DNA from: an uncultured Bacteroidales bacterium
Lineage (GTDB): Bacteria; Bacteroidota; Bacteroidia; Bacteroidales; Paludibacteraceae
Reading direction: 5' to 3'
NCBI GenBank assembly: GCA_902785605.1
Contig: CACZZL010000005.1
Coordinates: 108,628-172,627, forward strand
DNA length: 64,000 bases
The notes under the pieces are model-generated. The model had not been told where the DNA came from, ran no database searches, and worked only from the letters and a program-made list of their open reading frames with translations. The translations under genes and the position numbers were made by a program. Below, piece after piece: positions 1,886 through 63,777 of this stretch (within the stretch, counting starts at the first letter, position 1; every line of letters starts with the position of its first letter).

Positions 1886-3688
1886 TTACTCTTCGCTTAG
1901 AAGCTCCCATTCGTACATTTTTTGTTCTATCTGATGTTTGATGTTTTCGTATTTCTGAAAACGTTCCTGCGTCTGGTTCTCGGGCAGCGCCAACTCCTGT
2001 TCCATCTGTTGCTGCAGCGCCTCCAGTGCCGCTATCTCCTCTTCTGTCTGCGCGATTGCCCGCTCTTTCTTACGCTTCTCCGCTGCTACCGCTTTCTGTG
2101 CTGCGTAGTCGAGTTTTGCGGAGCTGATTTCTGATGGCTGACTGCTGACAGCTGACGGCTTCGACTTCTCCAGTTCCTGTAGCGAGTCTATTTTCTTTGC
2201 CCGTAGGAAATCGTAGATACCGCCGAGGTGCTCTTTGACGCGGCCGCCGCCGAACTCATAGACCTTGCTCACTAATCCGTTGAGGAAATCACGGTCATGG
2301 CTCACGCAGATGAGGGTGCCGTTGAACTCCTGCAGAGCGGCCTTGAGCACATCTTTGGACTGCATGTCGAGGTGGTTGGTCGGCTCATCGAGGATCAGCA
2401 GGTTACAGGGCTCGAGCAGCAATCGGATCATTGCCAAACGGCTTCGTTCACCTCCGCTGAGCACTTTCACTTTCTTTTCGGAGGCCTCACCGCCGAACAT
2501 GAACGCGCCCAGTATATCACGAATCTTGGTGCGGATATCGCCTACCGCCACATAATCGATGGTATCGAACACCGTCAGGTTCTCATCCAGCAGAGCGGCC
2601 TGATTCTGTGCAAAATAGCCAATCTTCACATTGTGCCCGATCTTGAGCGTACCCATATAATCGAGTTGCCCCATGATGCACTTGACGAGGGTCGATTTAC
2701 CTTCTCCGTTCTTACCCACAAACGCTACTTTCTCGCCTCGGCGAATGGTAAACGTCACGTCGTGGAAGACATTGTGTGCGCCAAAGTCCTTGCGCAGGTC
2801 TTCGACTATCAGCGGAAAATCACCGCTTCGGGGAGCAGGCGGGAATCGCAGGTTGAGCCGGCTGGTGTCCTCTAAATCGACCTCTAACCGCTCCAGTTTC
2901 TCCAACTGCTTGATGCGGCTCTGTACCTGGACCGCCTTGGTCGCTTTGTAGCGGAAGCGCTCAATGAACTCCTCCGTGTCCGCAATCATCTTCTGCTGGT
3001 TCTGGTACGCCCTTACCTGTTGCTCGTGCCGCTCCTTGCGCAGTTCAACGAACTTACTGTAGTTGACGTTATAGTCGTAGATACGGCCGAGTGTGATCTC
3101 AATCGTACGTCCGCACACGTTGTCAATGAACGCACGGTCGTGGCTGACCATCAGCACGGCACTCTGGCTGTTCTTAAGGAAGTCTTCGAGCCATTGGATG
3201 GACTCGATGTCGAGGTGGTTGGTCGGCTCGTCCAACAGCAGCAGATCCGGGTGGCGCAGCAGGATCTTGGCCAACTCAATACGCATACGCCATCCGCCGG
3301 AGAACTCCGAACACGGACGCTCAAAATCCTTGCGCTCAAAACCCAGACCGATGATCGTCCGGTCCATCTCGGCAATGAAACGCGCATCCTCCCCTTCACC
3401 CGTAACCTGTAACCCCTCATCCTTCACTCGCATCACCTCGTCCCGCAAGGTCCGGTCGTCGTGGAAGAGCATCATCTGCGGCAGGTAACCGATGGTCATA
3501 TCGGCATCCCTGGCGATTCGTCCGGCGGTGGGTTGGTACTCACCGGCAATCAGGCGCAGCAAGGTCGTCTTGCCCGCTCCGTTCTTACCCACCAGCGCAA
3601 TGCGCTCCTTGCGGTTGATAAGGAACGTGATGTCATCCAGCACCGGGCGGGATGAGAACTCCATGCTGATATGATCAATCGTTAGCAT
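1886..3688 (-). CDS. ABC-F family ATPase (Uup/EttA-like)
   Basis: A 600-residue protein with two ATP-binding cassettes and no membrane segments, the hallmark of ABC-F translation factors. Walker A motifs are GKNGAGKTTLLR (about residues 37-48) and GKNGEGKSTLVK (about 330-341). Signature motifs are FSGGWRMR and LSGGERSR, each followed by LLLDEPTNHLD or LILDEPTNHLD. The basic linker between the cassettes (YRYKATKAVQ region) and the C-terminal coiled coil (AQTEEEIAALEALQQQ) resemble Uup. ABC-F proteins act on ribosomes, often at the E site; the specific role here is unknown. Two short tandem arrays lie in frame, one giving GLQVTGEG (3398-3418) and one giving KPSAVSSQPSEIS (2124-2158). It overlaps the WecA-like gene by 14 bp. 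Confidence 0.9.
   Translation of the reverse strand: MLTIDHISMEFSSRPVLDDITFLINRKERIALVGKNGAGKTTLLRLIAGEYQPTAGRIARDADMTIGYLPQMMLFHDDRTLRDEVMRVKDEGLQVTGEGEDARFIAEMDRTIIGLGFERKDFERPCSEFSGGWRMRIELAKILLRHPDLLLLDEPTNHLDIESIQWLEDFLKNSQSAVLMVSHDRAFIDNVCGRTIEITLGRIYDYNVNYSKFVELRKERHEQQVRAYQNQQKMIADTEEFIERFRYKATKAVQVQSRIKQLEKLERLEVDLEDTSRLNLRFPPAPRSGDFPLIVEDLRKDFGAHNVFHDVTFTIRRGEKVAFVGKNGEGKSTLVKCIMGQLDYMGTLKIGHNVKIGYFAQNQAALLDENLTVFDTIDYVAVGDIRTKIRDILGAFMFGGEASEKKVKVLSGGERSRLAMIRLLLEPCNLLILDEPTNHLDMQSKDVLKAALQEFNGTLICVSHDRDFLNGLVSKVYEFGGGRVKEHLGGIYDFLRAKKIDSLQELEKSKPSAVSSQPSEISSAKLDYAAQKAVAAEKRKKERAIAQTEEEIAALEALQQQMEQELALPENQTQERFQKYENIKHQIEQKMYEWELLSEE
2124..2158 (-). repeat. Heptamer array, CTGAxxx class, 5 units (in ABC-F gene)
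   Basis: Units CTGATTT, CTGATGG, CTGACTG, CTGACAG, CTGACGG in exact register. It encodes PSAVSSQPSEIS in the linker before the C-terminal coiled coil. Confidence 0.93.
3398..3418 (-). repeat. Heptamer array, ACCCGTA class, 3 units (in ABC-F gene)
   Basis: Units ACCCGTA, ACCTGTA, ACCCCTC. 21 bp, so it adds seven codons (GLQVTGE). Confidence 0.85.
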
Positions 3689-4757
3689 TGTTGCCGTACA
3701 GTTTCTTGTTAATCACCCGCCATAGGATCAGCGTCATCACCGTGGCCAGTGCAAAATCAGCGAAGAGCAGGAGCCACATGTTCCAGTTACGTCCCAGGAT
3801 CGCCAGCCCGATAAAGACGACGCTCACGCTGAGCAGCACACAGGTCGTCTGGATATGGTTCAATCCCGTGCGTAACAACAGATGGTGAATATGGTTCTTG
3901 TCCGGTTTGAACGGGCTGCAGTGATGTTTGATGCGAGTCAGACTGACGCGGATGGTGTCGAAGACAGGCACCGTCAGTACACAGATGGCTACCGCCGGAG
4001 CGGCACTCATATGGTAGATCTCAGGCACGACATGGTACGCGTTCTGCTCGCAGAAACGGAACACAAACGCCGTTAGCAGATACCCCAATAGCAGACTGCC
4101 GCTGTCGCCCATGAAGATCTTCTCGCGGCGACCGAACACATTGAAAATGAAGAACACAGCCAACGCACCGATCATACAGATGGCTAAGATAGACCAACTG
4201 GTTGAACCCACAAGGTGAAAATAGATGGCGAAGAAAAGGCAGTAGAGGATACCTAAACCGCTGGCCAGGCCGTCGATGCCGTCAATGAGGTTAATGGCAT
4301 TGATGATGGCGACGAGAATGAACAGCGAGAGCAGATAACTGGGGATGACACCGATCTGCTCGATGCCGAACAGACCGTGCAGATGGGTGATACGCAGATC
4401 GCTGAATCCGATCAACGCTACGCCTGCCAAGGTCTCGCCTAACAACTTAGACAGCGGCGTCAGCACCAGCACGTCGTCCACAAAACCGACCGCCATGATG
4501 GCAGCGATACCAATCATAAAAAACTGGTTGTGTGCAATCTGACTATAATCAAACAGCAAGTACGACAGCATCACACTGAAGTAGATATTCAGCCCGCCTA
4601 TATTAGGCACCTCACCTGTGTGACTCATTCGTTTGTTCGGTCTCACCACAAAACCTTTCGCCTTCGCGATACGAATAACGACAGGCATTCCAATCCATCC
4701 CAGCGCAAAACTGACCAAGCCGATCAAATAACTATGTTCGATAAAAAATGTATGCAT
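3675..4757 (-). CDS. WecA/MraY-family glycosyl-1-phosphate transferase
   Basis: A 360-residue polytopic membrane protein with about ten hydrophobic helices. It carries the family motifs NIGGLNIYFSV, DDVL (the catalytic aspartates near residue 92), NAINLIDGIDGLASGLG, GDSGSLLLGYLL and KNHIHHLLLR. The HIHH motif is typical of the WecA/TagO branch, which uses UDP-N-acetylhexosamine-1-phosphate to start lipid-linked polysaccharides, more than of MraY itself. The enzyme would transfer a sugar phosphate from UDP-sugar to undecaprenyl phosphate at the inner membrane. Its start overlaps the stop of the capD-like gene by one base (TAATG). With capD, the deacetylase-like gene and the glycosyltransferase it forms a small envelope-glycan module. 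Confidence 0.88.
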   Translation of the reverse strand: MHTFFIEHSYLIGLVSFALGWIGMPVVIRIAKAKGFVVRPNKRMSHTGEVPNIGGLNIYFSVMLSYLLFDYSQIAHNQFFMIGIAAIMAVGFVDDVLVLTPLSKLLGETLAGVALIGFSDLRITHLHGLFGIEQIGVIPSYLLSLFILVAIINAINLIDGIDGLASGLGILYCLFFAIYFHLVGSTSWSILAICMIGALAVFFIFNVFGRREKIFMGDSGSLLLGYLLTAFVFRFCEQNAYHVVPEIYHMSAAPAVAICVLTVPVFDTIRVSLTRIKHHCSPFKPDKNHIHHLLLRTGLNHIQTTCVLLSVSVVFIGLAILGRNWNMWLLLFADFALATVMTLILWRVINKKLYGNNAND

Positions 4758-9401: not shown

Positions 9402-9412
9402 CGATGAATTCC

Positions 9413-9440
9413 TTAATTCTTAATTTTTAATTTTTAATTT
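9413..9440 (-). repeat. Heptamer array, TTAATTT class, HU-LysM/uvrA junction
   Basis: Units TTAATTC, TTAATTT, TTAATTT, TTAATTT. It contains the stop codon of the HU-LysM gene (9434-9436). Confidence 0.92.
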
Positions 9441-10879
9441 TTCACTTTTCCGTACGCCTCTTCGCGCAACTGAATAAACTGTGCACTCGTTGTATCACGC
9501 TGAGCTGCAGTCAGTTTCGGAACGCGAATAGGTGTGCCGATAACAATATTGCTCGGATTGGTGATATGATCCCGGTTCGCATCGTACAGGTACGGCCAGT
9601 ACACTTTGTTGCCGTAGTACTTCTTTGCAATCCATGCCAGACGGCTGCCTTCCGTGATGTACTCCGTCGTGATCCAGTTGTTGTACTGACCCGGGGTGTA
9701 CACGGTCTCGGTCGGCTCTACAACCGGCTCAACCGCTACCTCTTCCACCACTTCTACGGCTACTTCTTCTGCGGGCTCTTCTTTTTCCGAAATGAACTCC
9801 TCTTCGTCCAACTCAATGATCTCCTCTGTCGTCATTTCGGCCGGCTCGAAATAGCCCATGATCCATCTCTCAACCTCACGATACAGATTTTCGCACCACT
9901 CCCCTACAGCATAGAACTGATCTTCCAACCACTCCATGCAATCATTGTAAATGGATTTGGCACTCTGCGTCAAGTCCGTATCTTTCATGTTAGCAAGTTC
10001 ATCTTCCACGGCAGCGAACTCTTCCTCAAGGTCAGCAAACTCTTCCTTAGTTGCCTCGACTTCATCCGTGAATACCTCCACAGCTTCCGCCTCTTCTTGC
10101 TGAACTTCTGCGACTACTTCCGTTTGTTCCGGACTGCCATTGATCAGACCGTCCATCCAACTGCTCAACTTATGGCGCAGGAAGAAGAATCCGCCCAGCA
10201 GCAGGAACAGCAGAATAACGACGCAGATCAGCACGTCACGCAAGAAATGGAATTTCTTCTTCGGCTTCTCCGGTTCAGGTTCGGGTTCCGGTTCCGGCTT
10301 TGGAGTAACCGGCGGGATAGGCGGAATCGGCGGAATAACCACTGGCTCCGGCATTTTTATCGGTTCGGGTTCTTTCACGGGTTCGGGCTCCTTAACCTCT
10401 TCTTTGGCTGGTTCGGGCTCCTTTACGGGTTCTTTTGCTGGCTCCGGTTCCTTAACCGGCGGCTCCTTAACCTCTTCCGTTTCCTTCACCGGCTGACCCA
10501 ACTCACCCAATATATCTACGATCTCATTGGCCTGTGCACCCAATTTCTGCAACGGGTCGATCTCTGAAGGAGCAACGGCAGACGGCTGAACGCTTTCTAC
10601 CAACTCTTTCACACCTGCTTCCGGAACGAAAGCGATCTTGTTGTATCCCTCTATCGTAATCTCCTCGCCGGTCTTCACATTGACACTCTTGCGCGGTGCT
10701 ACGGCTTGTAACTTGAACGTGCCTAATCCGTTCACTTTCACCTGTTTGTCGGTCTTTAACGCTTCAATCAGTTGCGTTTGGAAAGCGTTCAGAAAAGCGG
10801 TTGCTTCCTTCTCGCTCACTCCTGCACGAGCCGCTAAAGCACGGCGTAACTCGGTCCAACTCAATTTATTCTCTGCCAT
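9434..10879 (-). CDS. HU-domain / transmembrane / LysM fusion protein
   Basis: A 481-residue mosaic. Residues 1-95 form an HU/IHF-type DNA-binding domain (GLGTFKLQAVAPRKSVNVKT followed by a GEEI beta-arm region). Residues 130-205 are a Pro/Glu/Lys linker with EPEPAKEPVK-type repeats, then PPIPPIPP and PEPEPEPEP. A basic stretch KKKFH precedes one membrane helix (about 213-235), so the N-terminus should be cytoplasmic. An acidic, coiled-coil-like segment (250-395) leads to a LysM-like domain (about 402-456: ITEGSRLAWIAKKYYG, NPSNIVIGTPIRVP) that would face the periplasmic peptidoglycan. It could tie the nucleoid to the cell wall; that is inference. It starts 3 bp after an HU gene. The last codons and stop run into a heptamer array. 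Confidence 0.85.
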   Translation of the reverse strand: MAENKLSWTELRRALAARAGVSEKEATAFLNAFQTQLIEALKTDKQVKVNGLGTFKLQAVAPRKSVNVKTGEEITIEGYNKIAFVPEAGVKELVESVQPSAVAPSEIDPLQKLGAQANEIVDILGELGQPVKETEEVKEPPVKEPEPAKEPVKEPEPAKEEVKEPEPVKEPEPIKMPEPVVIPPIPPIPPVTPKPEPEPEPEPEKPKKKFHFLRDVLICVVILLFLLLGGFFFLRHKLSSWMDGLINGSPEQTEVVAEVQQEEAEAVEVFTDEVEATKEEFADLEEEFAAVEDELANMKDTDLTQSAKSIYNDCMEWLEDQFYAVGEWCENLYREVERWIMGYFEPAEMTTEEIIELDEEEFISEKEEPAEEVAVEVVEEVAVEPVVEPTETVYTPGQYNNWITTEYITEGSRLAWIAKKYYGNKVYWPYLYDANRDHITNPSNIVIGTPIRVPKLTAAQRDTTSAQFIQLREEAYGKVKN

Positions 10880-11183: not shown

Positions 11184-11225
11184 CCTTCAACTTTACACCT
11201 TACACCTTACACCTTACACCTTACA
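11184..11225 (-). repeat. Heptamer array, CCTTACA class, 6 units, rimO/HU junction
   Basis: Units CCTTCAA, CTTTACA, then CCTTACA four times. The rimO stop codon (11221-11223) lies inside. The first two units look like the CTTTCAA class, so this array blends two classes. Confidence 0.93.
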
Positions 11226-12570
11226 CAATCTCCCCGTACAAATCAAACTCTTCGGCCTTCGTGATTCTCACATCAACGAAGTCCCCATTTTTAATTTTTA
11301 ATTTTTCATTTTTAATTTCAATCAGCACCTCGCAGTCCACCTCCGGGCTATCAAATTGAGTCCGACCGACCCAATAGTCACCGTCCTGTCGGTCAATGAT
11401 CACGCGCTGTACGGTACCCACTTTCTGCGCCATCAGTTCGCCGCTGATCTCCTGTTGAATAGCCATCAACTCCTCCACACGGCGTTCCTTCACCTCTTGC
11501 GGCACATCGTCCTTATAATGTTTGTTCGCGTACGTCCCTTCTTCGTCCGAGTAGGCAAAACAACCCATTCGGTCAAAACGCATCTCGCGTATCCACTGTT
11601 TCAACTCCTCAAAATCCTCTTCTGTCTCGCCCGGGTGGCCGACCAACAAGGTCGTTCTGATACAGATACCCGGCACTTGTTCCCGAATCTTCCGAATCAG
11701 CGCATCCTGTTCCGCTCTCGTGATATGCCGCCGCATCAGACTCAACATATGGTCCGTGCAATGCTGCAGCGCGATATCCAGGTACTTGCACACATTCGCA
11801 TGCTTTGCCATCACCTCCAACAGTTCCTCCGGAAAATCAGTCGGGTAGGCATAGTGCAACCGAATCCATTCCACACCTTCTATCTGCGCCATCTCATCAA
11901 TCAGTTCCGGCAACAAGTGTACCTTTGTACATTGTACATTGTCCCTTTGTACATGCAAGTCGAGTCCATAACTGCTCAGATCCTGCGCTATCACATTGAA
12001 CTCCTTTACGCCTTGGCTCACCAGCCAGCGTACTTCTTCCAAAATCTCCTCCTTCGGTCGGCTCGTGTGTCTGCCCGTAATCAGTGGAATGGCACAATAC
12101 GAACACATCCGGTTACATCCCTCCGATATCTTCAAATACGCATAATGGGCTGGGGTAGTCAAGTGCCGCTCGAAGAACTTACAACTTTCAACTCTCCGAC
12201 TTCTTTCAACTTTCAACTTTAAACTCTCAACTAATTCGAGGAAGTCGAACTTTCCGTAGTACTCATCGACTTCCGGCAACTCCTCCTCTAACTCAGCACG
12301 GTATCGCTCGCTTAGGCATCCCATCACAATCAGTTTCCGAAGTTTGCCCTTTTTCTTCCGCTCCGCCATCTGCAGAATCATATTGATGCTCTCTTCTTTG
12401 GCATCCCCGATGAACCCGCAGGTGTTGATCACACATACCTCACCCTTCGGTTCCTCCGGATCATGTACACAGCGCCATCCTGCCGCCTCTAACTGCCGCA
12501 TCACCCGCTCCGCATCGACTAAGTTCTTCGAGCACCCCAGCGTTATAAAATCAACTACACCCCGCCTCAC
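11221..12570 (-). CDS. rimO: Ribosomal protein S12 methylthiotransferase
   Basis: A 449-residue radical-SAM enzyme with a GTG start at 12570. The N-terminal MTTase domain has FITLGCSKNLVDAERV and VCVINTCGFI (cluster cysteines), the radical-SAM core has CNRMCSYCAIP (about residues 152-162) with TGRHTSRP, and a TRAM-like domain ends the protein. RimO adds a methylthio group to the conserved aspartate of ribosomal protein S12. Three segments that do not belong to the family are encoded by tandem short repeats: residues 113-131 (SLKLKVERSRRVES), 206-220 (HVQRDNVQCTKVH) and 417-428 (IEIKNEKLKIKN). All keep the frame. The stop codon is inside a fourth array. Confidence 0.95.
   Translation of the reverse strand: MRRGVVDFITLGCSKNLVDAERVMRQLEAAGWRCVHDPEEPKGEVCVINTCGFIGDAKEESINMILQMAERKKKGKLRKLIVMGCLSERYRAELEEELPEVDEYYGKFDFLELVESLKLKVERSRRVESCKFFERHLTTPAHYAYLKISEGCNRMCSYCAIPLITGRHTSRPKEEILEEVRWLVSQGVKEFNVIAQDLSSYGLDLHVQRDNVQCTKVHLLPELIDEMAQIEGVEWIRLHYAYPTDFPEELLEVMAKHANVCKYLDIALQHCTDHMLSLMRRHITRAEQDALIRKIREQVPGICIRTTLLVGHPGETEEDFEELKQWIREMRFDRMGCFAYSDEEGTYANKHYKDDVPQEVKERRVEELMAIQQEISGELMAQKVGTVQRVIIDRQDGDYWVGRTQFDSPEVDCEVLIEIKNEKLKIKNGDFVDVRITKAEEFDLYGEIV
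11287..11321 (-). repeat. Heptamer array, ATTTTTA class, 5 units (in rimO)
   Basis: Units ATTTTTA, ATTTTTA, ATTTTTC, ATTTTTA, ATTTCAA. It encodes IEIKNEKLKIKN in the TRAM region. Confidence 0.9.
11925..11953 (-). repeat. Heptamer array, TTGTACA class, 4 units (in rimO)
   Basis: TTGTACA, TTGTACA, TTGTCCC, one T, TTGTACA. It encodes HVQRDNVQCTKVH. Class shared with 27890-27924. Confidence 0.9.
12178..12237 (-). repeat. Heptamer array, CTTTCAA class (in rimO)
   Basis: Units CTTACAA, CTTTCAA, CTCTCCG, then ACTT, then CTTTCAA, CTTTCAA, CTTTAAA, CTCTCAA, CTAATTC. It encodes ESLKLKVERSRRVESCK. The ACTT interruption is shared with 26831-26897. Confidence 0.9.
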
Positions 12571-12575: not shown

Positions 12576-12610
12576 TTAATTTTTAATTCTTAATTTTTAA
12601 TTTTTAATTA
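12576..12610 (-). repeat. Heptamer array, TTAATTT class, recQ/rimO junction
   Basis: Units TTAATTT, TTAATTC, TTAATTT, TTAATTT, TTAATTA. It contains the recQ stop codon (12604-12606) and fills nearly the whole gap to the rimO GTG start. Confidence 0.93.
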
Positions 12611-22760: not shown

Positions 22761-22823
22761 TAATAAGGTAACTTATTAATTAAATTTATTAACTAATTTT
22801 ATTAACTAAATTCATTAAGCATT

Positions 22824-24324: not shown

Positions 24325-24345
24325 ATAATATACGTAGTATATTAT
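24325..24345 (-). terminator. Palindrome over the GH2 stop codon
   Basis: ATAATATAC, a 3-nt loop and GTATATTAT form a perfect inverted repeat that contains the stop codon of the GH2 gene (24342-24344). It may stabilise or end the galactose transcript; there is no strong T-run. Confidence 0.4.
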
Positions 24346-26837
24346 TCCGTGATTTTGAATTCTCCCTTATTCCCCTTCTTTATAATGAACGTACATTGTC
24401 CGGCAAAAGCGTGCATCTGTGGCTCTACAAACGAATCCAAACAAGCGGCATCTCCATTAGCAGCAGCTACAAAGCCATTTCCTTCATACCGAATCAGGTT
24501 ATTAGCCTTCGGGCAGATGTTTCCGTCTTTGTCAACTACCTTTATTGTATAATAGCACAACTCTTCAGGTTTCTCATCCTTATTGGCCCAAACAACTTCC
24601 AAATGATCCGGTTCGCCGGCAGTCTTAATACATTCTCGCGCTGCTTCCTTTCCATTCTCGTCATAGGCCACCACTTCTATTTGCCCTGCCTCATAAGGCA
24701 CGTCAAACCACATCAGACGATAGCGCGGTAATAACTCCGGTCTCGGCGCAGAACCCCATATCGGCGGAACAAAATCACCCACTTTCGGCATCTCACTAAC
24801 ATTAGCCTCTAACCCTTCGCCTTTAGCCTCTATCCTTTCGCCTTTCGCCATTAACTCTGTCTCTTCTTTCGTCGCAAAGCGTAACTTGCCGTAACTCTTA
24901 CCGTTCACAAACAACTCCGCACTCGGATACGTCGTGTAACAGAATACAGGCACTAAATCCCCTTCGCTCCAATTCCAGTGTGGCAGCACATGCAAAGTCG
25001 CGTCCTCTTTGTTCCACTGACTCCGATACAGCCAATACCTGTCTTTCGGAAGCGAAGCCAAGTCAATAATGCCGAAATAACTGCTGTGACTTGGCCATGC
25101 GTCTGTATCGTACGGAGAAGGTTCTCCTAAGTAGTCAAATCCCGTCCACACAAACTGTCCCAAAGTCCAGTTATAGTCGTCCTGTAACTGAAAATCCTGT
25201 TCCGGTAGTCCTGCCCATGGACAGTATTCCACATCATATCCGCTGCTCTGATAATCCTCATACATCGCGAAATCTTTCAATATAGCAGGAATCTTATACA
25301 CGCCGCGGCTGGATACCGTACTGGCTGTCTCCGAACCCAATATCATCTTCTGTGGCAGGTTCTCATAGCCCTCTTCGTACCGACTCGTACGATAATTGAA
25401 TCCCGGCAATTCTACCGCTGCGCCAAAACCGTTATGAATCACATGCATCGCTTGGTCCATGCCGTTCGTCACCGGTCGGGTAGGATCTAACTGGTGGAAG
25501 AGATCTTGCAGCATCGTTACAATCTCAATACCATCCGGCAGCACTTGGTTCCACACCTCGTTTCCGCTGCTCCACAACATCACACATGGGTCATTGCGGT
25601 AGTGCTTCACCATATTCGTGACATCCGCACGCCACCACTCATTAAACTCCTTGCTGTAGTCATTCTCCGTCTTCCCACAGTTCCATACATCAAACGGCTC
25701 GATCATCATCATCAGACCCATCTCATTGCACAACTGCACTAACTGCGGATCCGGCATGTTATGACTCGTCCGAATCGCATCACACCCCATGTCTTTAAGC
25801 ATCGTCAATTGGTGCCGCAACGCATCCTTATGTACAGCCGCACCTAACGGACCCAAATCATGATGCAGGCATACGCCCTTGAATTTCCTTGTCTCACCGT
25901 TCAACTGAAAACCGTGCTCCGGTGTATAACTCAGACTCCGAATACCAAACACCGTCTCTTTCTCGTCAATGAGTTCTGAAGGCTGATGGCTGACTTCTGA
26001 CTGCTTATAAACTCTCGTACGCGCGGTATACAGATACGGTGTCTCCGGACTCCACAAATGCGGATTCTTCACCTCCGCTACCGCTTGCTGTCCTTCCGCA
26101 CTTGCTACTACTTTGCCGTTAAACAAGATATCGGTCTTAATTTTTAATTCTTCATTTTTAATTTTTAATTCTTCAACACCGTTCTGCAACTCAACCTCTA
26201 TGGTGATCTGTGCAAACTCTTTGCTGATCTTCGGTGTACGAACCAGCACACCAAATGTCGGGATATGAATCGGGTGGGTTTCTACCAAGTGTACATTCCT
26301 ATACAAGCCTGCACCGGGATACCAACGGCTCTGTTGGGGCTTGTTCTCCAGATACACATCAATATCCACACTGTCACCGGTCATTAACTCAGGCAGAATA
26401 TAACAGTCAAACGTGTTGTACCCGTAGGGCCAATACACCATCTCTTCTCCGTTGACATACACGTCTGCATGACTCATCGCACCGTCAAACACCAGTGTGT
26501 AGAATTTTTCCTTATCCACTGCTACGCGCGTATGATAATGACCCTTACCCATCCAGGGGAGTCCACCACTACGGCCTGTTTTCCAGGTCGGCTCTTTCTC
26601 TCCGTTCTGCACAACGATCACTTCCTGTAAGTCGTTTGCACGGTCAAAAGGACCGCTGATGGCCCAATCGTGCGGAACAGTAACATCTTCCCATACGGGA
26701 TTCTCTGTCGTGTCATGCGTAAACTGCCATTGTCGCAACAAGGTGTCTGTGCGTACAGGCTGCTTCGTGGAACATGAATACAACACCATGCTACTAATCA
26801 GCAGCATGGTGTACATGATATTGAGTGGAACTTTCAT
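24342..26837 (-). CDS. Glycoside hydrolase family 2 beta-galactosidase, lipoprotein
   Basis: An 831-residue enzyme with a lipoprotein signal (MVLYSC at about residues 17-22). An N-terminal sugar-binding domain (DVTVPHDWAISGPFD) and immunoglobulin-like domain precede the TIM barrel. The acid/base glutamate is in SSGNEVWNQ and the nucleophile in ILGSETAST, both GH2 hallmarks; CDAIRTSHNMPDP also matches. The C-terminal region resembles the DUF4982-type extension of Bacteroidales beta-galactosidases. It should release galactose that GalM and GalK then process. Three in-frame tandem arrays occur: residues 220-234 (ELKIKNEELKIK), 279-287 (within KQSEVSHQPSEL) and 661-678 (AKGERIEAKGEGLEA). Its ATG lies inside another array. 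Confidence 0.92.
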   Translation of the reverse strand: MKVPLNIMYTMLLISSMVLYSCSTKQPVRTDTLLRQWQFTHDTTENPVWEDVTVPHDWAISGPFDRANDLQEVIVVQNGEKEPTWKTGRSGGLPWMGKGHYHTRVAVDKEKFYTLVFDGAMSHADVYVNGEEMVYWPYGYNTFDCYILPELMTGDSVDIDVYLENKPQQSRWYPGAGLYRNVHLVETHPIHIPTFGVLVRTPKISKEFAQITIEVELQNGVEELKIKNEELKIKTDILFNGKVVASAEGQQAVAEVKNPHLWSPETPYLYTARTRVYKQSEVSHQPSELIDEKETVFGIRSLSYTPEHGFQLNGETRKFKGVCLHHDLGPLGAAVHKDALRHQLTMLKDMGCDAIRTSHNMPDPQLVQLCNEMGLMMMIEPFDVWNCGKTENDYSKEFNEWWRADVTNMVKHYRNDPCVMLWSSGNEVWNQVLPDGIEIVTMLQDLFHQLDPTRPVTNGMDQAMHVIHNGFGAAVELPGFNYRTSRYEEGYENLPQKMILGSETASTVSSRGVYKIPAILKDFAMYEDYQSSGYDVEYCPWAGLPEQDFQLQDDYNWTLGQFVWTGFDYLGEPSPYDTDAWPSHSSYFGIIDLASLPKDRYWLYRSQWNKEDATLHVLPHWNWSEGDLVPVFCYTTYPSAELFVNGKSYGKLRFATKEETELMAKGERIEAKGEGLEANVSEMPKVGDFVPPIWGSAPRPELLPRYRLMWFDVPYEAGQIEVVAYDENGKEAARECIKTAGEPDHLEVVWANKDEKPEELCYYTIKVVDKDGNICPKANNLIRYEGNGFVAAANGDAACLDSFVEPQMHAFAGQCTFIIKKGNKGEFKITE
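24802..24857 (-). repeat. Heptamer array, TTCGCCT class, 8 units (in GH2 gene)
   Basis: Eight units in exact 7-bp register: TTAGCCT, CTAACCC, TTCGCCT, TTAGCCT, CTATCCT, TTCGCCT, TTCGCCA, TTAACTC. It encodes the GERIEAKGEGLEA stretch. A related array is at 35927-35962. Confidence 0.9.
25976..26003 (-). repeat. Heptamer array, CTGAxxx class, 4 units (in GH2 gene)
   Basis: Units CTGAAGG, CTGATGG, CTGACTT, CTGACTG. The same class is found in the ABC-F gene at 2124-2158; the peptides are alike (QSEVSHQPSEL here, SAVSSQPSEIS there). Confidence 0.9.
26137..26178 (-). repeat. Heptamer array, TTAATTT class, 6 units (in GH2 gene)
   Basis: Units TTAATTT, TTAATTC, TTCATTT, TTAATTT, TTAATTC, TTCAACA in exact register. 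Total 42 bp, a multiple of three, so the frame is kept. Confidence 0.92.
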
Positions 26838-26897
26838 CTTTCAACTTTCAACTATAAAACTTCTTTCAACTTTAAACTTTCAACTTTAAACTTTACA
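26831..26897 (-). repeat. Heptamer array, CTTTCAA class, galM/GH2 junction
   Basis: Units CTTTCAT, CTTTCAA, CTTTCAA, CTATAAA, then ACTT, then CTTTCAA, CTTTAAA, CTTTCAA, CTTTAAA, CTTTACA. It runs from the galM stop through the whole 55-bp gap into the GH2 start codon. The same ACTT interruption occurs in the array inside rimO at 12178-12237. Confidence 0.92.
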
Positions 26898-27889: not shown

Positions 27890-27924
27890 TTGTCCTTTGT
27901 ACATTGTACATTGTAAATTGTAAA
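27890..27924 (-). repeat. Heptamer array, TTGTACA class, galK/galM junction
   Basis: Units TTGTCCT, TTGTACA, TTGTACA, TTGTAAA, TTGTAAA in exact register, filling the gap between the galK stop (27925) and galM start (27888). The class recurs inside rimO at 11925-11953. Confidence 0.92.
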
Positions 27925-29130: not shown

Positions 29131-29167
29131 AGTGATATATTTTAATAAATGATTATCAAATTTTGTG

Positions 29168-29198
29168 CAAAGATACAAAATATTTTGCATTTATGCAA
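29168..29198 (-). promoter_or_regulatory. galK operon promoter
   Basis: Minus strand TTGCATAA then TATCTTTG with 27 nt from TTGC to TTTG. TTTTGCATAAATGCAAAA forms a palindrome across the -33 box. Confidence 0.85.
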
Positions 29199-33493: not shown

Positions 33494-33523
33494 TCTTAAT
33501 TTTTAATTCTTAATTTTTAATTT
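33489..33523 (-). repeat. Heptamer array, TTAATTT class, TonB receptor/PorT junction
   Basis: Units GTAATTC, TTAATTT, TTAATTC, TTAATTT, TTAATTT, lying 3 bp after the receptor stop codon and running into the putative ATT start of the PorT-like gene. Confidence 0.9.
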
Positions 33524-48891: not shown

Positions 48892-48919
48892 TTAATTCTT
48901 AATTCTTAATTTTTAATTT
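48892..48919 (-). repeat. Heptamer array, TTAATTT class, pepT/gcvT junction
   Basis: Units TTAATTC, TTAATTC, TTAATTT, TTAATTT in register. The pepT stop (48906-48908) is inside the array, and the last pepT residues (VKIKN) are encoded by it. Confidence 0.9.
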
Positions 48920-50069
48920 TCACAATCTCGAGAATGACGTCTCGTGCGGCTTCGAGAGATTTGATGGGCAGATACTCGTACCGGCTGTGGAAGTTCTCGC
49001 CGCCTGCGAAGATATTGGGACACGGCAGTCCCTCAAAACTCAGCCGTGCACCGTCCGTACCGCCGCGAATAGGCTTCACTACCGGCGTCACACCGACTGC
49101 CGTCATGGCCTCTTTGGCCAGATCAATGATGTGCATGACCGGTTCGATCTGCTCGCGCATGTTGTAATACTGATCGCGTATCTCAATCTCGGCCGTTCCT
49201 TCACCGAACTCCGTGTTGATCTTACGTACCAGATGCTCCATCTCGCGTTTGCGGTACTCGAACTGCGTGCGGTCGTGGTCACGGATGATATAATTGAGGG
49301 TCGTCTCTTCCACCGTGCCGTTCATGCCGATCAGGTGATAGAACCCTTCGTAACCTTGCGTATGCTCCGGGGTCTGGAACCGCGGCAGCATAACTGCCAA
49401 CTGGTACGCGATGCGCATCGAGTTACGCATCTTGTGGTACGCCGTGCCCGGATGCACATTCAGACCGTGCACTTTGATTTTGCAATAAGCGGCGTTGAAG
49501 TTCTCATACTCCAACTCACCAATCGCACCGCCGTCCATCGTATACGCCCAATTGGCACCGAACGCTTGCACGTCAAAATGATCCGCTCCCTGACCGATCT
49601 CCTCGTCCGGCGTGAAACCGATACGCACCTTGCCGTGTCGGATCTCCGGATGAGCTATCAGGTACTCACAAGCTGTTACGATCTCAGCGATACCGGCTTT
49701 GTCATCGGCACCCAGCAAGGTCGTTGTGTCCGTCACGATCACATCCTGCCCGGCGTAGCGCGCATCGATATAATCGCGCTCTTCTGCCTTCACAATGCTC
49801 GCCTTCACATGTCTCCCGCTCGCGTCCGGACTCGTGTCCATGTGCGCAATGAATCCGATAACAGGGTGACCCTCTTCTGTCGCCGGAAGAGTAGCCATAA
49901 TATACCCGTTCTCATCCAGCGTCACCTCGCTTAACCCGATCTGTTTCAACTCGTCCGCCAGATAGCGGGCAAACTCCATCTGCCCGGGCGTGGACGGGGT
50001 CATGCCGGTGTTCTCATCGCTCGTCGTGCAGAACGAAACGTATTTCAAAAAACGATCTACGATATTCAT
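48906..50069 (-). CDS. pepT: Tripeptidase (peptidase T)
   Basis: A 387-residue M20-family metallopeptidase, slightly shorter than the usual 400-410. Metal-binding motifs: [37 protein letters not shown] (catalytic glutamate), YTMDGG, and [14 protein letters not shown] near the C-terminus. It removes N-terminal residues from tripeptides in the cytoplasm. The C-terminus KIKN and stop are supplied by a tandem array, so the natural end may have been replaced. It lies 1 bp after the small lipoprotein gene. Confidence 0.95.
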
Positions 50070-52113: not shown

Positions 52114-52815
52114 ATGACCGTATTATACGAAGACAACCATATTATAGCCGTCAACAAAACCTGCAACGAGATCGTACAGGGCGACAAAACAGGCGATACA
52201 CCCTTGAGCGAAATCGTCAAGGAGTATATCAAAGACAAATATAACAAACCCGGGGAAGTGTTCCTCGGTGTGACCCATCGTCTGGACCGTCCAACTAGCG
52301 GAGTGGTGCTCTTTGCCCGTACCTCCAAAGCCCTCACCCGTCTCAACGAGATGTTCAAGGAAAAATCACAAATTACCAATCACCAATCACCAATCACTAA
52401 GACGTATTGGGCCATCGTGCAAGGTGCTCCCAAACAAGCCGAAGCACGGCTGGAGAACTGGTTGGTTCGCAACGAGGCGCAGAACAAATCCTATATAACA
52501 AAACCGAATGCAAAGGATGCGAAGCAGGCTATTCTGACTTATCGTACACTTGTTCGCGGAGAAAACTACACCTTGTTAGAAATCAATCTGGAGACCGGAA
52601 GACACCATCAGATACGCTGTCAATTGGCGGCTATCGGGTGCCCGATCAAAGGGGATTTGAAGTACGGTGCCAAGCGCTCCAATCCTGACGGAGGCATCTG
52701 TCTGCATGCCCGCAAAATTGAATTTATTCACCCTGTAAAAAAAGAACCCATATGTATCACAGCTCCCGTTCCCAACGACTCCTTGTGGCAGCAGCTCTCT
52801 GCATCTGTTCGCTAA
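52114..52815 (+). CDS. RluA-family pseudouridine synthase
   Basis: A 233-residue enzyme read from ATG at 52114 (MTVLYEDNHIIAVNK); an ATG 15 codons earlier is inside the promoter. The catalytic aspartate is in VTHRLDRPTSGVVLFA (HRLD motif), with LEINLETGRHHQIRCQLAAIG further on. It isomerises uridine in rRNA or tRNA; the site is not predictable. A tandem array (52365-52397) encodes EKSQITNHQSPITKTYW at a place where relatives have a shorter turn. The stop codon lies in another array, and the last 64 bp overlap the start of the next gene. Confidence 0.94.
   Translation: MTVLYEDNHIIAVNKTCNEIVQGDKTGDTPLSEIVKEYIKDKYNKPGEVFLGVTHRLDRPTSGVVLFARTSKALTRLNEMFKEKSQITNHQSPITKTYWAIVQGAPKQAEARLENWLVRNEAQNKSYITKPNAKDAKQAILTYRTLVRGENYTLLEINLETGRHHQIRCQLAAIGCPIKGDLKYGAKRSNPDGGICLHARKIEFIHPVKKEPICITAPVPNDSLWQQLSASVR
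52365..52397 (+). repeat. Heptamer array, CAATCAC class, about 4 units (in RluA gene)
   Basis: CAAATTAC then CAATCAC three times in register (52377-52397). It encodes ITNHQSPIT. Confidence 0.88.
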
Positions 52816-54425
52816 TCCCTAACACCCTAATCGCTAATCCCTTACCCGCCTTTCCGGGTGCGGAAGGATTTGGCAAGTACGCTTCCGGTGGTCGGGGTGG
52901 TCAGGTAGTCTATGTGACCAGCCTCGCCGATGATTCCGACGGCACCACCGAAGGGACGCTCCGTTGGGCCATGAAGCAATATCCGAACGAGCCGATCACC
53001 GTTTGTTTTGCGGTGTCGGGTGAGATACGACTCGTCAAGGACCTGCGTATCAACCGCAAGAACTACACCATCGCCGGACAGACTGCTCCGGGCATGGGAA
53101 TCATCATCACGCACAACAAAGTGAACTGCGGCGGGTCGGAGAATTTCATCATCCGGAACATCCGTTTTCGTATCGGTCGCAATGATGTGAACGGGAACAT
53201 CATTACCCAGAACGCCTTCGGTGCGGAGAACTGCAGTAACTACATCATCGACCACTGCGAGTTCGGCTGGTCTACCGAGGAGAACATGAACACCTACGAC
53301 AGCCATTTCATCACTGTGCAGTACTGCATTGTGCACGAAGGACTCAATAAGTCCGGTCACCCGAAAGGGGAACGTGGATACGGTTGCCAATGGGGCGGTT
53401 CTCCCGCTACCTATCACCATAACCTGCTGGTAAACAACAACAAACGTTCGTGCCGTTTCAACGGTGCGCAGAGCAATGACTATGTCGTCTACCTCGATTA
53501 TATCAACAATGTGAACTATAATTTCGAGGGAGGCTCCAACGGCTGTTACGGCGGCGAGAACACCGCCAAGCTGGCAGAAGGGGAGTACAACGGACTCAAC
53601 TCGGCACACGAGTGCAATTTCGTGAACAATTACTACAAAGCCGGACCCAATACGACCAATACGAAATATTTCGTGTCGGTGGAGAAAGCGCGTAGCGGTG
53701 CTACCAGTTGGGGACCGAGTAAGTGGTATCTGAGCGGAAACATTTTCGACGGTGTACCCGCTGCGACCGAAGATAACTGGTCAGCGGTCAATGTAAAGGG
53801 TTATGCCAAAGAAGAGAGTCGTGTCGATACGCTCATTCGTCCGGCTACGCCTTGGTGGCGCTGGACACAAGACTCCATCTACGGACGCTATGACTTCGAT
53901 ACCTATGCCTATGCGGCAAGCAACTACGAGAGCGCGGAAGAGGCATACGAGACCGTGCTGGACACGGCCGGTGTGTTCCCGCGTGACCATGTGGGCTTGC
54001 GTCTTATCGCGGACACGCGCGCGGGTTCCTATACCTATACAGGCAGCCAAACCAAGAAGAAAGGGATCATCGACACCGAAACCGATGCCGAAGGCTTCTA
54101 CGATTATCCGGAAGCGGACGCATTAAGCGATTTGGATGCAGACGGCATGCCTGATTTCTGGGAAGCCTTGAACGGCACCGATCCGCTCAACCCGGACAAT
54201 AACACCCTGCACGAGAGCGGATACACGATGCTCGAGATGTACCTCGATTACGCCATGACCCATCGCGAGCCGATGAATGACGGATATACCCCTTCAGAAG
54301 AAGGCATTCAGAACACAGCGCATGGCACACAGGCACAAAAAATAATCCGCGAAGGACAGATCTATATCCAACGCGGATCCAAAACATACACCCTCGAAGG
54401 GCAAGTTATAGAGGTAAATAAATAA
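52752..54425 (+). CDS. Secreted pectate-lyase-like protein (PL1 type)
   Basis: A 557-residue protein with signal peptide (RLLVAAALCICSLIPNTLIA). It starts at 52752 inside the previous gene, in another frame. The mature protein opens with PAFPGAEGFGKYASGGRGG, the usual start of PL1-type lyases, followed by TLRWAMKQYPNEPITVCFAVSG and beta-helix strands (ENFIIRNIRFRIGRNDV, NYIIDHCEFGWSTEEN). After the helix an Asp-rich segment (LDADGMPDFWEALNGTDPLNPD) resembles a calcium-binding EF/TSP3 loop. The end, AQKIIREGQIYIQRGSKTY, then TLEGQVIEVNK, resembles the tail of the SusE-like protein. Pectin cleavage is inferred from family. Confidence 0.85.
   Translation: MYHSSRSQRLLVAAALCICSLIPNTLIANPLPAFPGAEGFGKYASGGRGGQVVYVTSLADDSDGTTEGTLRWAMKQYPNEPITVCFAVSGEIRLVKDLRINRKNYTIAGQTAPGMGIIITHNKVNCGGSENFIIRNIRFRIGRNDVNGNIITQNAFGAENCSNYIIDHCEFGWSTEENMNTYDSHFITVQYCIVHEGLNKSGHPKGERGYGCQWGGSPATYHHNLLVNNNKRSCRFNGAQSNDYVVYLDYINNVNYNFEGGSNGCYGGENTAKLAEGEYNGLNSAHECNFVNNYYKAGPNTTNTKYFVSVEKARSGATSWGPSKWYLSGNIFDGVPAATEDNWSAVNVKGYAKEESRVDTLIRPATPWWRWTQDSIYGRYDFDTYAYAASNYESAEEAYETVLDTAGVFPRDHVGLRLIADTRAGSYTYTGSQTKKKGIIDTETDAEGFYDYPEADALSDLDADGMPDFWEALNGTDPLNPDNNTLHESGYTMLEMYLDYAMTHREPMNDGYTPSEEGIQNTAHGTQAQKIIREGQIYIQRGSKTYTLEGQVIEVNK
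52811..52846 (+). repeat. Heptamer array, CTAATCC class, RluA / pectate lyase overlap
   Basis: Units GCTAATC, CCTAACA, CCCTAATC (8), GCTAATC, CCTTACC. It contains the RluA stop codon and encodes LIPNTLIANPL around the signal-peptide cleavage region of the lyase. Confidence 0.85.
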
Positions 54426-60322: not shown

Positions 60323-61747
60323 TTATCGAAGAAGGTATATTTTTTCGGTAGCACGGGTCAAAGCGGTGTATAACCAGCGCAAGTATTCGTGTTTTTCCGC
60401 GTCCGCTAATTCGTTCGTCCATTCGTCCGTTAAGCCCGAATCAATGTACACATGCCGCCATTGTCCGCCTTGTGCTTTGTGGCAGGTTACGGCGTACGCG
60501 TACCGGATCTGCAACGCGTTGTAGTACGGCGATTCGAAGATGGTCTTCACCAACTCTTTCTTGTTCCGAATCTCCGGATAGTCCTCCGCGATGCGGGCAA
60601 AGAGCTCTTTTTGCAGCATATAATTGGCCTCCGGACTGTCCGTCGTGAGCGTGTCCAGCCACACGAGCGCCTCGATCTCCCAGTTGTAATCCACCGACCG
60701 CAGCGAGGCTTTGGCGAAATGAAAACCGTACAGCTCGTGATGATTGCTAAGTCGCTCAATCTCAAACATATCGCCATTGGCGATGAACTCCAGATCCTCG
60801 TACTCCTCAGCCCAGAAATAGTTGTTCTTGGTCACCATGATCCGGTCGCCGTTGGACAGCTCGTCCTCTTTCCACAGCACGTTCGCCCGGACCGATCCGT
60901 TGTAGAGGTTGGTCAACTTGTTACTGCGGGTGATGATGAGCGTCTCTTCCGCGCCTACGGTTCGCCAACTGTCCTCCAGCGTCTCAATCGCGTTCTCGCC
61001 GGACAACTTGACGATATCTTTCCCGTTCGGCTGAACGGATAAATCTCCAATCTCCAATCTGAAATCTGAAATCTGAAATCTGAAATCTGAAATCTTTTCT
61101 CTTATCCTCGTCGCTTCGCTCAGAATCCCGCTGTCCAGCGCCTGTCGCGCCACGTCGGTTAACCCGTAACCCGTAACCTGTAACCCGTAACCCCTCATGT
61201 AATCCGCCTCCAGCGCAGGGCTGTTGGTACTGCCCACGGGCGGTAACTGCGCATCGTCGCCGACTAACAGCAGGCTGCAGCCCGGACCGTTGTACACGAA
61301 CCGCACCAGGTCGTCCAGCAAACAGCCGCTGCCGAAGGTCGTGTTATCACGGTTGCCGGACAGCATGGACGCTTCATCGACGATAAAAAGGGTGTTGCGG
61401 TGCAGGTTATCCGTCAGCGAGAACGCTTCTTGGCCCAGTTGGTTCTGACGATAAATCTTTTTATGGATTGTATACGCCTGCGCGCCCGAGTAGCGACTCA
61501 GCACCTTGGCGGCGCGGCCGGTAGGGGCGAGTAGGACACAGGGTTGTTTGAGTTCCGCGAGTGCCCGCACCAACGCACTCATCACGCTCGTCTTACCCGT
61601 ACCCGCATAACCGCGCAGAATGAACGCCTTGCGCGGGTCACGGCTGATGATGAACTGACCCAGCGCCGTGAACAAACCCTCTTTCTCTTCGTTCGGTTCA
61701 AACGGCAGCTGTGCCTTGATACGTCCTATGATAAAGTCCTGAAGCAT
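60323..61747 (-). CDS. RecD-like ATP-dependent DNA helicase
   Basis: A 474-residue superfamily 1B helicase of the RecD/ExoV-alpha type. Walker A GYAGTGKTS (46-54), TGRAAKVLSRYSG, LFIVDEASMLS (120-130), LLVGDDAQLPPVGS, and motif VI region VTCHKAQGGQWRHVYID with YTALTRATEKIYLLR at the end. The short form lacks the RecD2 N-terminus. Two in-frame arrays alter the middle: residues 185-196 (GYGLQVTGYGL) and 217-236 (EKISDFRFQISDF then RLEIGDL), where Bacteroides relatives as I recall have an ordinary EVVRQ-type loop. A third, 8-bp array lies at 60401-60432. It is 1 bp after the upstream barrel gene. Confidence 0.92.
   Translation of the reverse strand: MLQDFIIGRIKAQLPFEPNEEKEGLFTALGQFIISRDPRKAFILRGYAGTGKTSVMSALVRALAELKQPCVLLAPTGRAAKVLSRYSGAQAYTIHKKIYRQNQLGQEAFSLTDNLHRNTLFIVDEASMLSGNRDNTTFGSGCLLDDLVRFVYNGPGCSLLLVGDDAQLPPVGSTNSPALEADYMRGYGLQVTGYGLTDVARQALDSGILSEATRIREKISDFRFQISDFRLEIGDLSVQPNGKDIVKLSGENAIETLEDSWRTVGAEETLIITRSNKLTNLYNGSVRANVLWKEDELSNGDRIMVTKNNYFWAEEYEDLEFIANGDMFEIERLSNHHELYGFHFAKASLRSVDYNWEIEALVWLDTLTTDSPEANYMLQKELFARIAEDYPEIRNKKELVKTIFESPYYNALQIRYAYAVTCHKAQGGQWRHVYIDSGLTDEWTNELADAEKHEYLRWLYTALTRATEKIYLLR
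60401..60432 (-). repeat. 8-bp tandem array, 4 degenerate units (in RecD-like gene)
   Basis: Units GTCCGCTA, ATTCGTTC, GTCCATTC, GTCCGTTA. It encodes LTDEWTNELAD. Weaker than the others and could be chance. Confidence 0.45.
61044..61099 (-). repeat. Heptamer array, TCTGAAA class, 8 units (in RecD-like gene)
   Basis: Units TCTCCAA twice, TCTGAAA five times, TCTTTTC, in exact 7-bp register. It encodes ISDFRFQISDFRLEIGD. This is the cleanest array in the window. Confidence 0.95.
61162..61196 (-). repeat. Heptamer array, ACCCGTA class, 5 units (in RecD-like gene)
   Basis: Units ACCCGTA, ACCCGTA, ACCTGTA, ACCCGTA, ACCCCTC. It ends with the same ACCCCTCAT as the array in the ABC-F gene (3398-3418). 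Confidence 0.92.
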
Positions 61748-62990: not shown

Positions 62991-62999
62991 AAAATCGTG

Positions 63000-63472: not shown

Positions 63473-63530
63473 GCCCTTAGTACGTACGCATACTCCCCCT
63501 AATAGGGGGACGTATGCAGTACTAACGGGC
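63473..63530. other. Long imperfect palindrome (58 bp)
   Basis: GCCC/GGGC and TTAGTAC/GTACTAA form the outer arms, then TACGCATAC against CGTATGCA, and CCCCC-TAATA-GGGGG at the tip. The stem is about 25 bp with few mismatches. It directly follows the stop of the small frame 63531-63680. No T-run on either side. Confidence 0.75.
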
Positions 63531-63680: not shown

Positions 63681-63722
63681 CAATTGAGCGCGTAGATCGT
63701 TCTATAATGTTCCATTTTTCTC

Positions 63723-63777
63723 ATCGGTATTACATCGGTATCACATCGGAGGCAATACGGAGGCAATACGGAGGTAA
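63723..63777. repeat. 11-bp tandem array, CGG class, 5 units
   Basis: Units ATCGGTATTAC, ATCGGTATCAC, ATCGGAGGCAA, TACGGAGGCAA, TACGGAGGTAA. Units drift gradually along the array. Confidence 0.85.

What the first reader, a model, noticed from the sequence alone, without database searches (positions are those of the whole stretch)
2124..63777. Dispersed degenerate heptamer arrays: an unnamed short-tandem-repeat system
About 25 short arrays are visible, most with an exact 7-bp period and 3-9 units, where single units differ by one to three bases. At least a dozen sequence classes exist (TTAATTT, CTTTCAA, CCTTACA, TTGTACA, TCTGAAA, ACCCGTA, CTGAxxx, TTCGCCT, CAATCAC, CTAATCC, AAAGGAC), and six classes occur at two or more unrelated loci. 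Such density and class sharing cannot come from independent slippage. The closest precedent I know is the STRR heptamers of heterocystous cyanobacteria; I know of no named equivalent in Bacteroidales.
Basis: partly seen in the sequence, partly recalled or inferred. Interest (0 to 1): 0.82.

Follow-up and report, generated by a model that had tools for sequence, protein, structure and literature searches.

The report
Copied seven-letter repeat blocks in genes
A group of uncultured rumen bacteria carries many short DNA arrays repeating every seven letters, and the shared end points and shared order of variant units suggest that ready-made arrays of about 33 letters are copied from place to place into gene junctions and protein loops, rather than arising separately at each site.

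Summary
The arrays are real. The window holds 15 strict period-7 arrays against 0 in simulated sequence. A 464-kb sample of the same Paludibacteraceae-related MAG holds 120, against at most 9 for any period from 4 to 30 that is not a multiple of seven; 236 kb from 20 other families of the order holds 2. Heptamer arrays are a known kind (Xanthomonas, cyanobacteria, Beggiatoaceae, five Bacteroidetes). Three things go beyond what I found in print. (1) Families have shared end points: AAATTAA-type arrays favour 33 bp, GGGTTAC-type 31 bp, in several species; GGGTTAC copies even share letters just outside the repeat. Weaker in other classes. (2) AAATTAA arrays share a genome-specific order of variant units across unrelated loci. 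(3) One protein loop holds arrays of 19 unit classes in 32 of 81 species. This fits dispersal as ready-made blocks, filtered by selection on strand and frame, better than independent slippage. How they are copied is inferred: no target-site duplication was seen, and neither RVT_1 nor Y1_Tnp was found in G000, G006 or G021.

The parts
2124..2160 (-). weak heptamer array (CTGAxxx) inside an ABC-F-like ATPase gene (1886-3688; name inferred from Pfam)
   Evidence: the orthologous place holds other period-7 sequence in G003, G036 and G015
9412..9450 (-). AAATTAA-type array at the junction between the HU-domain gene (9434-10879) and the UvrA-like gene (6651-9401); the upstream stop codon lies in the array
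11193..11226 (-). (GTGTAAG)x4.9 array right after the RimO-like gene; the matching stretch is 0-1 nt in five of 11 relatives aligned (L131, G015, G026, G030, G079)
11287..11318 (-). AAATTAA-type array in the TRAM-domain part (site s3) of the RimO-like gene 11221-12570
11925..11954 (-). TTGTACA-type array inside the radical-SAM domain (site s2)
   Evidence: 48 of 81 species have an 18-nt loop there
12176..12232 (-). AAAGTTG-type array between the UPF0004 and radical-SAM domains (site s1)
12576..12609 (-). AAATTAA-type array at the RecQ-like / RimO-like junction; one unit shorter (27 bp) in the closest relative L131
24802..24849 (-). TTCGCCT / TTAGCCT array inside the GH2 gene 24342-26837
26137..26170 (-). 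AAATTAA-type array inside the GH2 gene; one unit reads AAATGAA, which avoids an in-frame stop (peptide EELKIKNEELKIK)
26829..26895 (-). two AAAGTTG-type arrays at the aldose-epimerase / GH2 junction
27890..27926 (-). TTGTACA-type array filling the junction 27925-29190 / 26893-27888
33440..33523 (-). AAAGGAC array (33440-33466, with indels) and AAATTAA-type array (33490-33523) just downstream of gene 33527-36112
48892..48920 (-). AAATTAA-type array at the junction 48906-50069 / 47799-48884
52363..52397 (+). CAATCAC array inside the predicted gene 52114-52815
52812..52842 (+). CTAATCC array near the start of the predicted gene 52785-54425
61041..61095 (-). AATCTGA/AATCTCC array, 7.9 units, in frame inside a PIF1/UvrD-type helicase gene (60323-61747)
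61160..61193 (-). GGGTTAC-type array in the same helicase gene, in the strand that has no stop codon in any frame

Best explanation
The arrays are members of many small families of dispersed heptamer blocks. In each genome some ready-made arrays (76 of 120 are 26-35 bp, four to five units) with shared first and last positions in the unit cycle have been copied to many unrelated places in both orientations. Copies survive where they do no harm: at or just after a stop codon or between co-directional genes, there preferring the strand that carries stop codons; or in frame in protein loops, there preferring the strand without stops, or with a unit base changed so that no stop arises. After landing, arrays gain and lose whole units and mutate. 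SHOWN by sequence: period, density, shared end points, shared order of variant units (one class), genome-specific families, strand-by-context rule, the same sites occupied by different heptamers. INFERRED: that this means copying; that copying happens by replication or repair patching (template switching or illegitimate repair) rather than by a transposase or reverse transcriptase; and that a first array is born by 7-nt slippage.
For: End points: AAATTAA arrays start at phase 0/1 in 29 of 45 and end at phase 4/5 in 31 of 45 in G000; G035 20 and 22 of 25; G015 14 and 13 of 20. Against a simulated null, Monte Carlo p <= 5e-5 at both ends in G000 and G035, 0.004 and 0.03 in G015. GGGTTAC arrays start at phase 0 in 21 of 40 and end at phase 2 in 20 of 40 in G000, and in 14 and 12 of 21 in G035/G026/G032. 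At those ends letters outside the repeat are shared too: A at -2 in 20 of 21 and 13 of 14, A at +1 in 15 of 20 and 11 of 12; further out nothing is. Other classes, three genomes: pairs sharing left phase 95 of 322 (null 45.6), right 91 (null 46.0), p < 0.0005. Unit order in AAATTAA arrays: pairs sharing an ordered 4-unit word 30 vs 7.9 (G000), 5 vs 0.7 (G015), 8 vs 2.7 (G035, p 0.018); within-genome sharing 43 of 159 pairs, between-genome 36 of 337, p 0.001. Genome-specific expansion: GGTTAY x3 windows 93 in G000, 63 in G035, 47 in G006, 4 in G015, 0 in 34 of 61; reversed pattern 1 in G000. Strand by context: units with stops on one strand only, CDS 7 sense: 23 antisense, junction 23: 9, Fisher p 1.6e-4; GGGTTAC type CDS 13:1, junctions 1:4. 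Empty sites: stretch at 11193 is 0-1 nt in five of 11 relatives; loop s2 is 18 nt in 48 of 81 species. Confidence was raised from 0.57 to 0.60.
Against: Unit-order sharing is shown for one class only; for AACCCGT and AAAGTTG the test gave 0 pairs, though the null expected only 0.48 and 0.0, so it had little power. AAAGTTG arrays share the right end (p 0.0004) but not significantly the left (p 0.126). The phase null is a plain rotation that ignores flank composition. At 12576 the change seen between close relatives is one whole unit, as slippage predicts. Flanks beyond one or two bases share nothing and there is no target-site duplication, and no mobilising enzyme was found, so the copying step has no agent. 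Shared ends could also arise if a recurring seed is amplified again and again. One genome per species was available, so no copying event was seen directly.
Confidence: 0.6

Rival explanations
1. Independent slippage at each site: DNA polymerase favours 7-nt slips (an idea that PMC4679880 and PMC4692102 credit to Mrazek and colleagues; that paper was not read), so arrays arise wherever a seed lies in tolerant sequence; class sharing reflects slip-prone seeds.
For: Period 7 dominates in G000, its relatives and the 80-species set. One whole-unit length change between close relatives. Same loops carry different heptamers in different species. MutS is present in G000, G035, G015, G006 and G021, so no repair defect need be assumed.
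Against: Shared ends, shared letters just outside them, shared unit order between unrelated loci, and class abundance that differs between genomes of one genus; lengths peak at 30-34 bp and drop at 35 rather than falling off steadily.
Confidence: 0.25
2. Regulatory leaders: the arrays are translation or termination elements kept between genes, as proposed for TAACTGA repeats upstream of start codons (PMC4679880); they supply stops and an A-rich leader.
For: Of 60 arrays between co-directional genes 33 end within 10 nt of (or beyond) the next start and 46 begin no later than 10 nt after the previous stop; the sense strand is purine-rich in 40 of 60; 37 of 60 close all three frames.
Against: 44 of 120 arrays lie inside coding sequence; the same class occurs in both settings in opposite orientation; at the two junctions of the RimO-like gene 67 and 74 of 81 species have no array; unit sequences are unrelated.
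Confidence: 0.08
3. A dedicated mobilising enzyme (reverse transcriptase, Y1/RAYT transposase, or one not yet recognised) writes or moves the blocks.
For: Defined ends and dispersal in both orientations look like an element.
Against: RVT_1 has no match in G000, G035, G006 or G021 and one in G015; Y1_Tnp none in G000, G006, G015 or G021 and one just at the cut-off in G035; no target-site duplication. MAGs are incomplete (G000 83.5%), and no other enzyme family was searched for.
Confidence: 0.07

Closest known systems
TAACTGA direct repeats of Beggiatoaceae, cyanobacteria and some Bacteroidetes (MacGregor 2015, PMC4679880; abstract, passages and sections 12 and 15 read)
   Same: Heptamer tandem arrays, many per genome, mostly at gene junctions; forward strand has stops in all frames, reverse strand found in ORFs; mobility raised, no mechanism.
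   Different: One unit sequence; here 38 classes in 464 kb and none is TAACTGA. Shared ends, unit order and site re-use are added here.
GGGAATC / GGGGA(C/T)T heptamers of Xanthomonas and Nostoc (Rehm 2015, PMC4692102; abstract, passages and Discussion read)
   Same: Heptamers genome-wide, preference for four units, between aligned ORFs, under-represented between divergent ORFs.
   Different: They link the four-unit preference to G-quadruplexes; here AAATTAA and AAAGTTG arrays, which lack G-tracts, have a similar size.
Tandem repeats of constant size and variable sequence (Subirana and Messeguer 2021, PMC8161180, passages read; 2019, PMC6749651, passages read)
   Same: Repeat length is the invariant, sequence families differ by species; the 2019 paper mentions a possible transposition mechanism for short repeats.
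   Different: Their constant sizes are 20-21 and 52 nt.
STRR heptamers of heterocystous cyanobacteria (recalled; no primary paper read)
   Same: Degenerate heptamer arrays.
   Different: Other phylum; no comparison of sequences or ends was made here.
Rickettsia palindromic elements (recalled; seen only as a search term)
   Same: Short dispersed sequences inserted in frame in genes.
   Different: Those are palindromic (recalled); heptamer blocks are tandem.

Membership tests
Heptanucleotide simple sequence repeats of prokaryotes (broad kind) | tandem units of 7 nt well above chance | tested here: met
TAACTGA direct repeats (MacGregor) | unit TAACTGA | tested here: not met
   not among the 38 classes of 120 arrays in the 464-kb sample
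TAACTGA direct repeats (MacGregor) | stop-bearing strand at junctions, other strand in ORFs | tested here: met
   Fisher p 1.6e-4
GGGAATC-type G-quadruplex repeats (Rehm) | G-tract in the unit | tested here: not met
   true of GGGTTAC-type classes only; most of the 38 classes have no G or C tract of three
Constant-size, variable-sequence repeats (Subirana) | one repeat length, many species-specific sequences | tested here: met
   period 11 and 8 arrays also occur at lower numbers
Constant-size, variable-sequence repeats (Subirana) | length 20-21 or 52 nt | tested here: not met
   length is 7
MITE / REP-RAYT elements | target-site duplication | tested here: not met
   flanks sharing 2 nt or more: 11 of 120, about 10.7 expected; 1-nt matches 34 against 25.6
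MITE / REP-RAYT elements | Y1 transposase partner in the genome | tested here: not met
   0 matches in G000, G006, G015, G021; one at the cut-off in G035; G000 is 83.5% complete
Rickettsia palindromic elements | in-frame presence in ORFs | tested here: met
   44 of 120 arrays inside predicted coding sequence
Rickettsia palindromic elements | palindromic fold | not tested
   no fold was run

The most novel reading that the evidence does not exclude
The heptamer block is a new type of minimal dispersed element: about four and a half units with defined ends, whose conserved property is a 7-nt period and a total length near 33 bp rather than any sequence, multiplied by a cellular copying process that treats the array as a unit and keeps renewing its sequence at a fixed set of tolerant sites.
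Probability: 0.25. Interest if true: 0.8.

Novelty: new variant of a known kind. Interest (0 to 1): 0.6.

Why it matters
Heptamer repeats have been noted in scattered bacteria and the reason for the number seven is unexplained in the papers read here. A genus with dense arrays, dozens of sequenced species and many unit families lets the question be split: what sets the period, what sets the size of about 33 bp, and what copies a block from one gene to another. A similar size in classes without G-tracts argues that G-quadruplex formation is not a general reason for four-unit arrays. If the copying is real, it also inserts new peptides into loops of conserved enzymes.

Tried and rejected
Chance: rejected. 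Shared ancestry alone: not enough for the RimO-like gene, where parsimony needs 14 (s2) and 27 (s3) class changes on the tree of the rest of the protein; 29 of its 78 inner branches are drawn open, so these are rough. Reverse transcriptase and Y1 transposase as necessary agents: not supported. Loss of MutS: not supported. Spread by phages: exact 32- and 31-letter blocks hit 1 and 3 stretches of the viral collection, which were not looked at further. Target-site duplication: none. Flank motif: I first read as showing none; one search shows shared letters at -2 and +1 of GGGTTAC arrays and nothing further out (the base at -1 is limited to A or G by the search rule). Ordered-unit test in AACCCGT and AAAGTTG: no pairs, little power. 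The reversed-pattern control for TTAATTY is uninformative, because the unit reads nearly the same backwards; that for GGTTAY is 1 in G000 but up to 7 elsewhere (G003) and equals the count in G015 (4 and 4). The end-phase test on all classes was first run with the 80 orthologous loci included, which counts common descent, and was repeated without them. In one search about six arrays of mixed units appear under both AAATTAA and AAAGTTG. Nine of ten allowed literature searches were run; seven bore on heptamers or bacterial repeats, and apart from MacGregor's two TAACTGA sets in Paludibacter propionicigenes no listed title or abstract start concerned heptamers in this family. Only one library was searched.
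Full report
WHAT IS THERE. The window is a stretch of a 2.08-Mb, 83.5% complete genome (G000). Relatives found by a protein search of the genome collection are Paludibacteraceae/Bacteroidales MAGs, many from ruminants. Period-7 tandem arrays are not chance: 15 strict arrays in the window against 0.0 in ten simulations, and 120 in 464 kb of the same genome (400 kb fetched, plus the window) against at most 9 for any period from 4 to 30 that is not a multiple of seven, and 0 in a Markov-4 simulation. They fall into 38 unit classes, 19 of them seen twice or more; the largest are AAAAATT (28), AACCCGT (17) and AAAGTTG (9). In 385 kb from ten species of the genus there are 57 arrays: per 40 kb G015 14, G035 13, G079 7, G003 6, G026, G036 and G030 2 each, G002 1; G021 8 in 31 kb, G022 2 in 34 kb. 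Single stretches (422 to 20,000 bases) from 20 other families of the order gave 2 arrays in 236 kb.

WHERE THEY SIT. With a simple gene caller of my own (363 genes, 86% coding), 60 of 120 arrays lie between co-directional genes, 44 inside coding sequence, 8 between convergent and 6 between divergent genes, 2 at sequence ends. Set against the spacer lengths that is roughly 1.5, 2.9 and 0.5 arrays per kb for co-directional, convergent and divergent pairs. Of the 60, 46 begin no later than 10 nt after the upstream stop codon, 33 end within 10 nt of (or beyond) the downstream start, 27 do both and 8 neither. The sense strand is purine-rich in 75 of the 104 arrays inside genes or between co-directional genes. 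Where a unit has stop codons on one strand only, the stop strand is antisense in 23 of 30 coding arrays and sense in 23 of 32 junction arrays (Fisher p 1.6e-4). In the GGGTTAC family 13 of 14 coding copies are in the stop-free strand, 4 of 5 junction copies in the stop-bearing strand. AAATTAA arrays inside genes carry AAATGAA units where a stop would otherwise fall, for example at 26137-26170.

THE SAME SITES, DIFFERENT HEPTAMERS. The gene at 11221-12570 has Pfam UPF0004, Radical_SAM and TRAM_2 domains (the name RimO is inferred). Its three arrays lie at three places whose length varies across the genus. In 81 species (G000 and the best 80 of 147 relatives), at a slightly lower threshold, arrays occur at s1 in 17, s2 in 16 and s3 in 32 species, in the junction before the gene in 14, after it in 7, and elsewhere in 4. 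The units differ: 9 classes at s1, 11 at s2, 19 at s3. At s2, 48 of 81 species have an 18-nt loop. On a tree of the rest of the protein the class changes at least 14 times at s2 and 27 times at s3 (support is weak in places). At 11193 the stretch that corresponds to 66-67 nt in G000 is 0-1 nt in five of 11 relatives aligned, 5-9 nt in three, another heptamer array in G021, and longer in G035 and G036; at 12576 the closest relative L131 has the same array one unit shorter. Some species fill the same places with unrelated sequence, among it a dispersed repeat.

EVIDENCE THAT BLOCKS ARE COPIED. First, ends. If arrays grew at each site separately, the phase of the unit at which they start and stop should vary. 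In AAATTAA arrays the start is at phase 0 or 1 in 29 of 45 and the end at phase 4 or 5 in 31 of 45 in G000; G035 20 and 22 of 25; G015 14 and 13 of 20. Against a null that allows chance extension into the flanks, p is at most 5e-5 at both ends in G000 and G035, and 0.004 and 0.03 in G015. GGGTTAC arrays prefer start 0 and end 2 in G000 (21 and 20 of 40) and in G035, G026 and G032 (14 and 12 of 21). At those ends a letter outside the repeat is shared as well: A two bases before the start in 20 of 21 and 13 of 14, and A directly after the end, where the repeat would have T, in 15 of 20 and 11 of 12; further out nothing is shared. AAAGTTG arrays share the right end (p 0.0004) but not the left (p 0.126). 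In other classes pairs share a left or right phase about twice as often as a plain rotation null (95 and 91 of 322 against 46). Second, order. In AAATTAA arrays the GAATTAA variant takes the same place in unrelated loci (AAATTAA x3, GAATTAA, AAATTAA in G000): 30 pairs share an ordered four-unit word against 7.9 by reshuffling, 5 against 0.7 in G015, 8 against 2.7 in G035, and sharing is higher within than between genomes (p 0.001; 13, 10 and 9 arrays with informative words in G000, G035 and G015, of 31, 20 and 18 collected). The same kind of test in AACCCGT and AAAGTTG found no pairs, with little power. Third, lengths peak at 30-34 bp and drop at 35. Fourth, families expand in particular genomes: GGTTAY windows number 93 in G000, 63 in G035 and 47 in G006, but 4 in G015 and 0 in G021, which carry the AAATTAA family (39 and 12 windows).

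HOW IT MIGHT WORK. The sequence record supports dispersal of ready-made blocks in both orientations, then removal of harmful copies, then unit gain and loss. What copies them is inferred. RVT_1 has no match in G000, G035, G006 or G021 (one in G015), and Y1_Tnp none in G000, G006, G015 or G021 (one at the cut-off in G035); flanks show no target-site duplication. MutS is present in these five genomes. I favour replication or repair patching (template switching), with 7-nt slippage as the origin of new families.

WHAT IS KNOWN. Heptamer arrays are a known kind (PMC4679880, PMC4692102), as is constant repeat size with variable sequence (PMC8161180). MacGregor already noted the strand rule for TAACTGA and raised mobility; Rehm noted a four-unit preference and linked it to G-quadruplexes. 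A survey of short tandem repeats (PMC12699852, passages read) reports a subset of 6-9 bp units enriched in prokaryotic phyla and a high repeat density in Bacteroidota. New here, as far as the searches show, are the shared ends, the shared unit order, the re-use of sites by different heptamers, and the many-class set in this group.

LIMITS. One genome per species; MAGs; own gene calls; the G035 and G015 stretches were chosen around AAATTAA-family hits, so the class shares for those genomes are biased toward it (the densities come from stretches chosen by orthology). The strongest evidence rests on the AAATTAA and GGGTTAC families.

Noticed in passing
63722-63780: Two adjacent 11-bp tandem arrays (CATCGGTATYA, then CGGAGGYAATA). 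In the 80-species set period 11 is the commonest period that is not a multiple of seven (57 arrays).
   Followed up: partly
22773-22818: A 13-bp AT-rich tandem repeat just upstream of a + strand gene; G035 has a shorter version at the orthologous place.
   Followed up: partly
L119, L123 (G035, G003): An unrelated dispersed repeat, GGACGCTTCGCTACAGGACGG, sits in loop s1 of the RimO-like gene in G003 and just after the gene in G035; exact copies 12 in G035, 3 in G003, 3 in G014, 1 each in four others, 0 in G000 and the remaining 53 of 61.
   Followed up: partly
56211-56573: A 96-bp tandem repeat (about 3.5 copies) inside the gene 55755-58349.
   Followed up: no
10269-10456: 6-, 9- and 30-bp repeats in the part of the HU-domain gene 9434-10879 that follows the HU domain.
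   Followed up: no
L138, RimO-like loop s3: The s3 array has about 13 units (CAATGCA/CAATTCA), while its sister L149 has about 4 units of the same class.
   Followed up: no
L271-L274: Four viral-collection stretches carry exact heptamer blocks; whether they are phages of this family was not checked.
   Followed up: no
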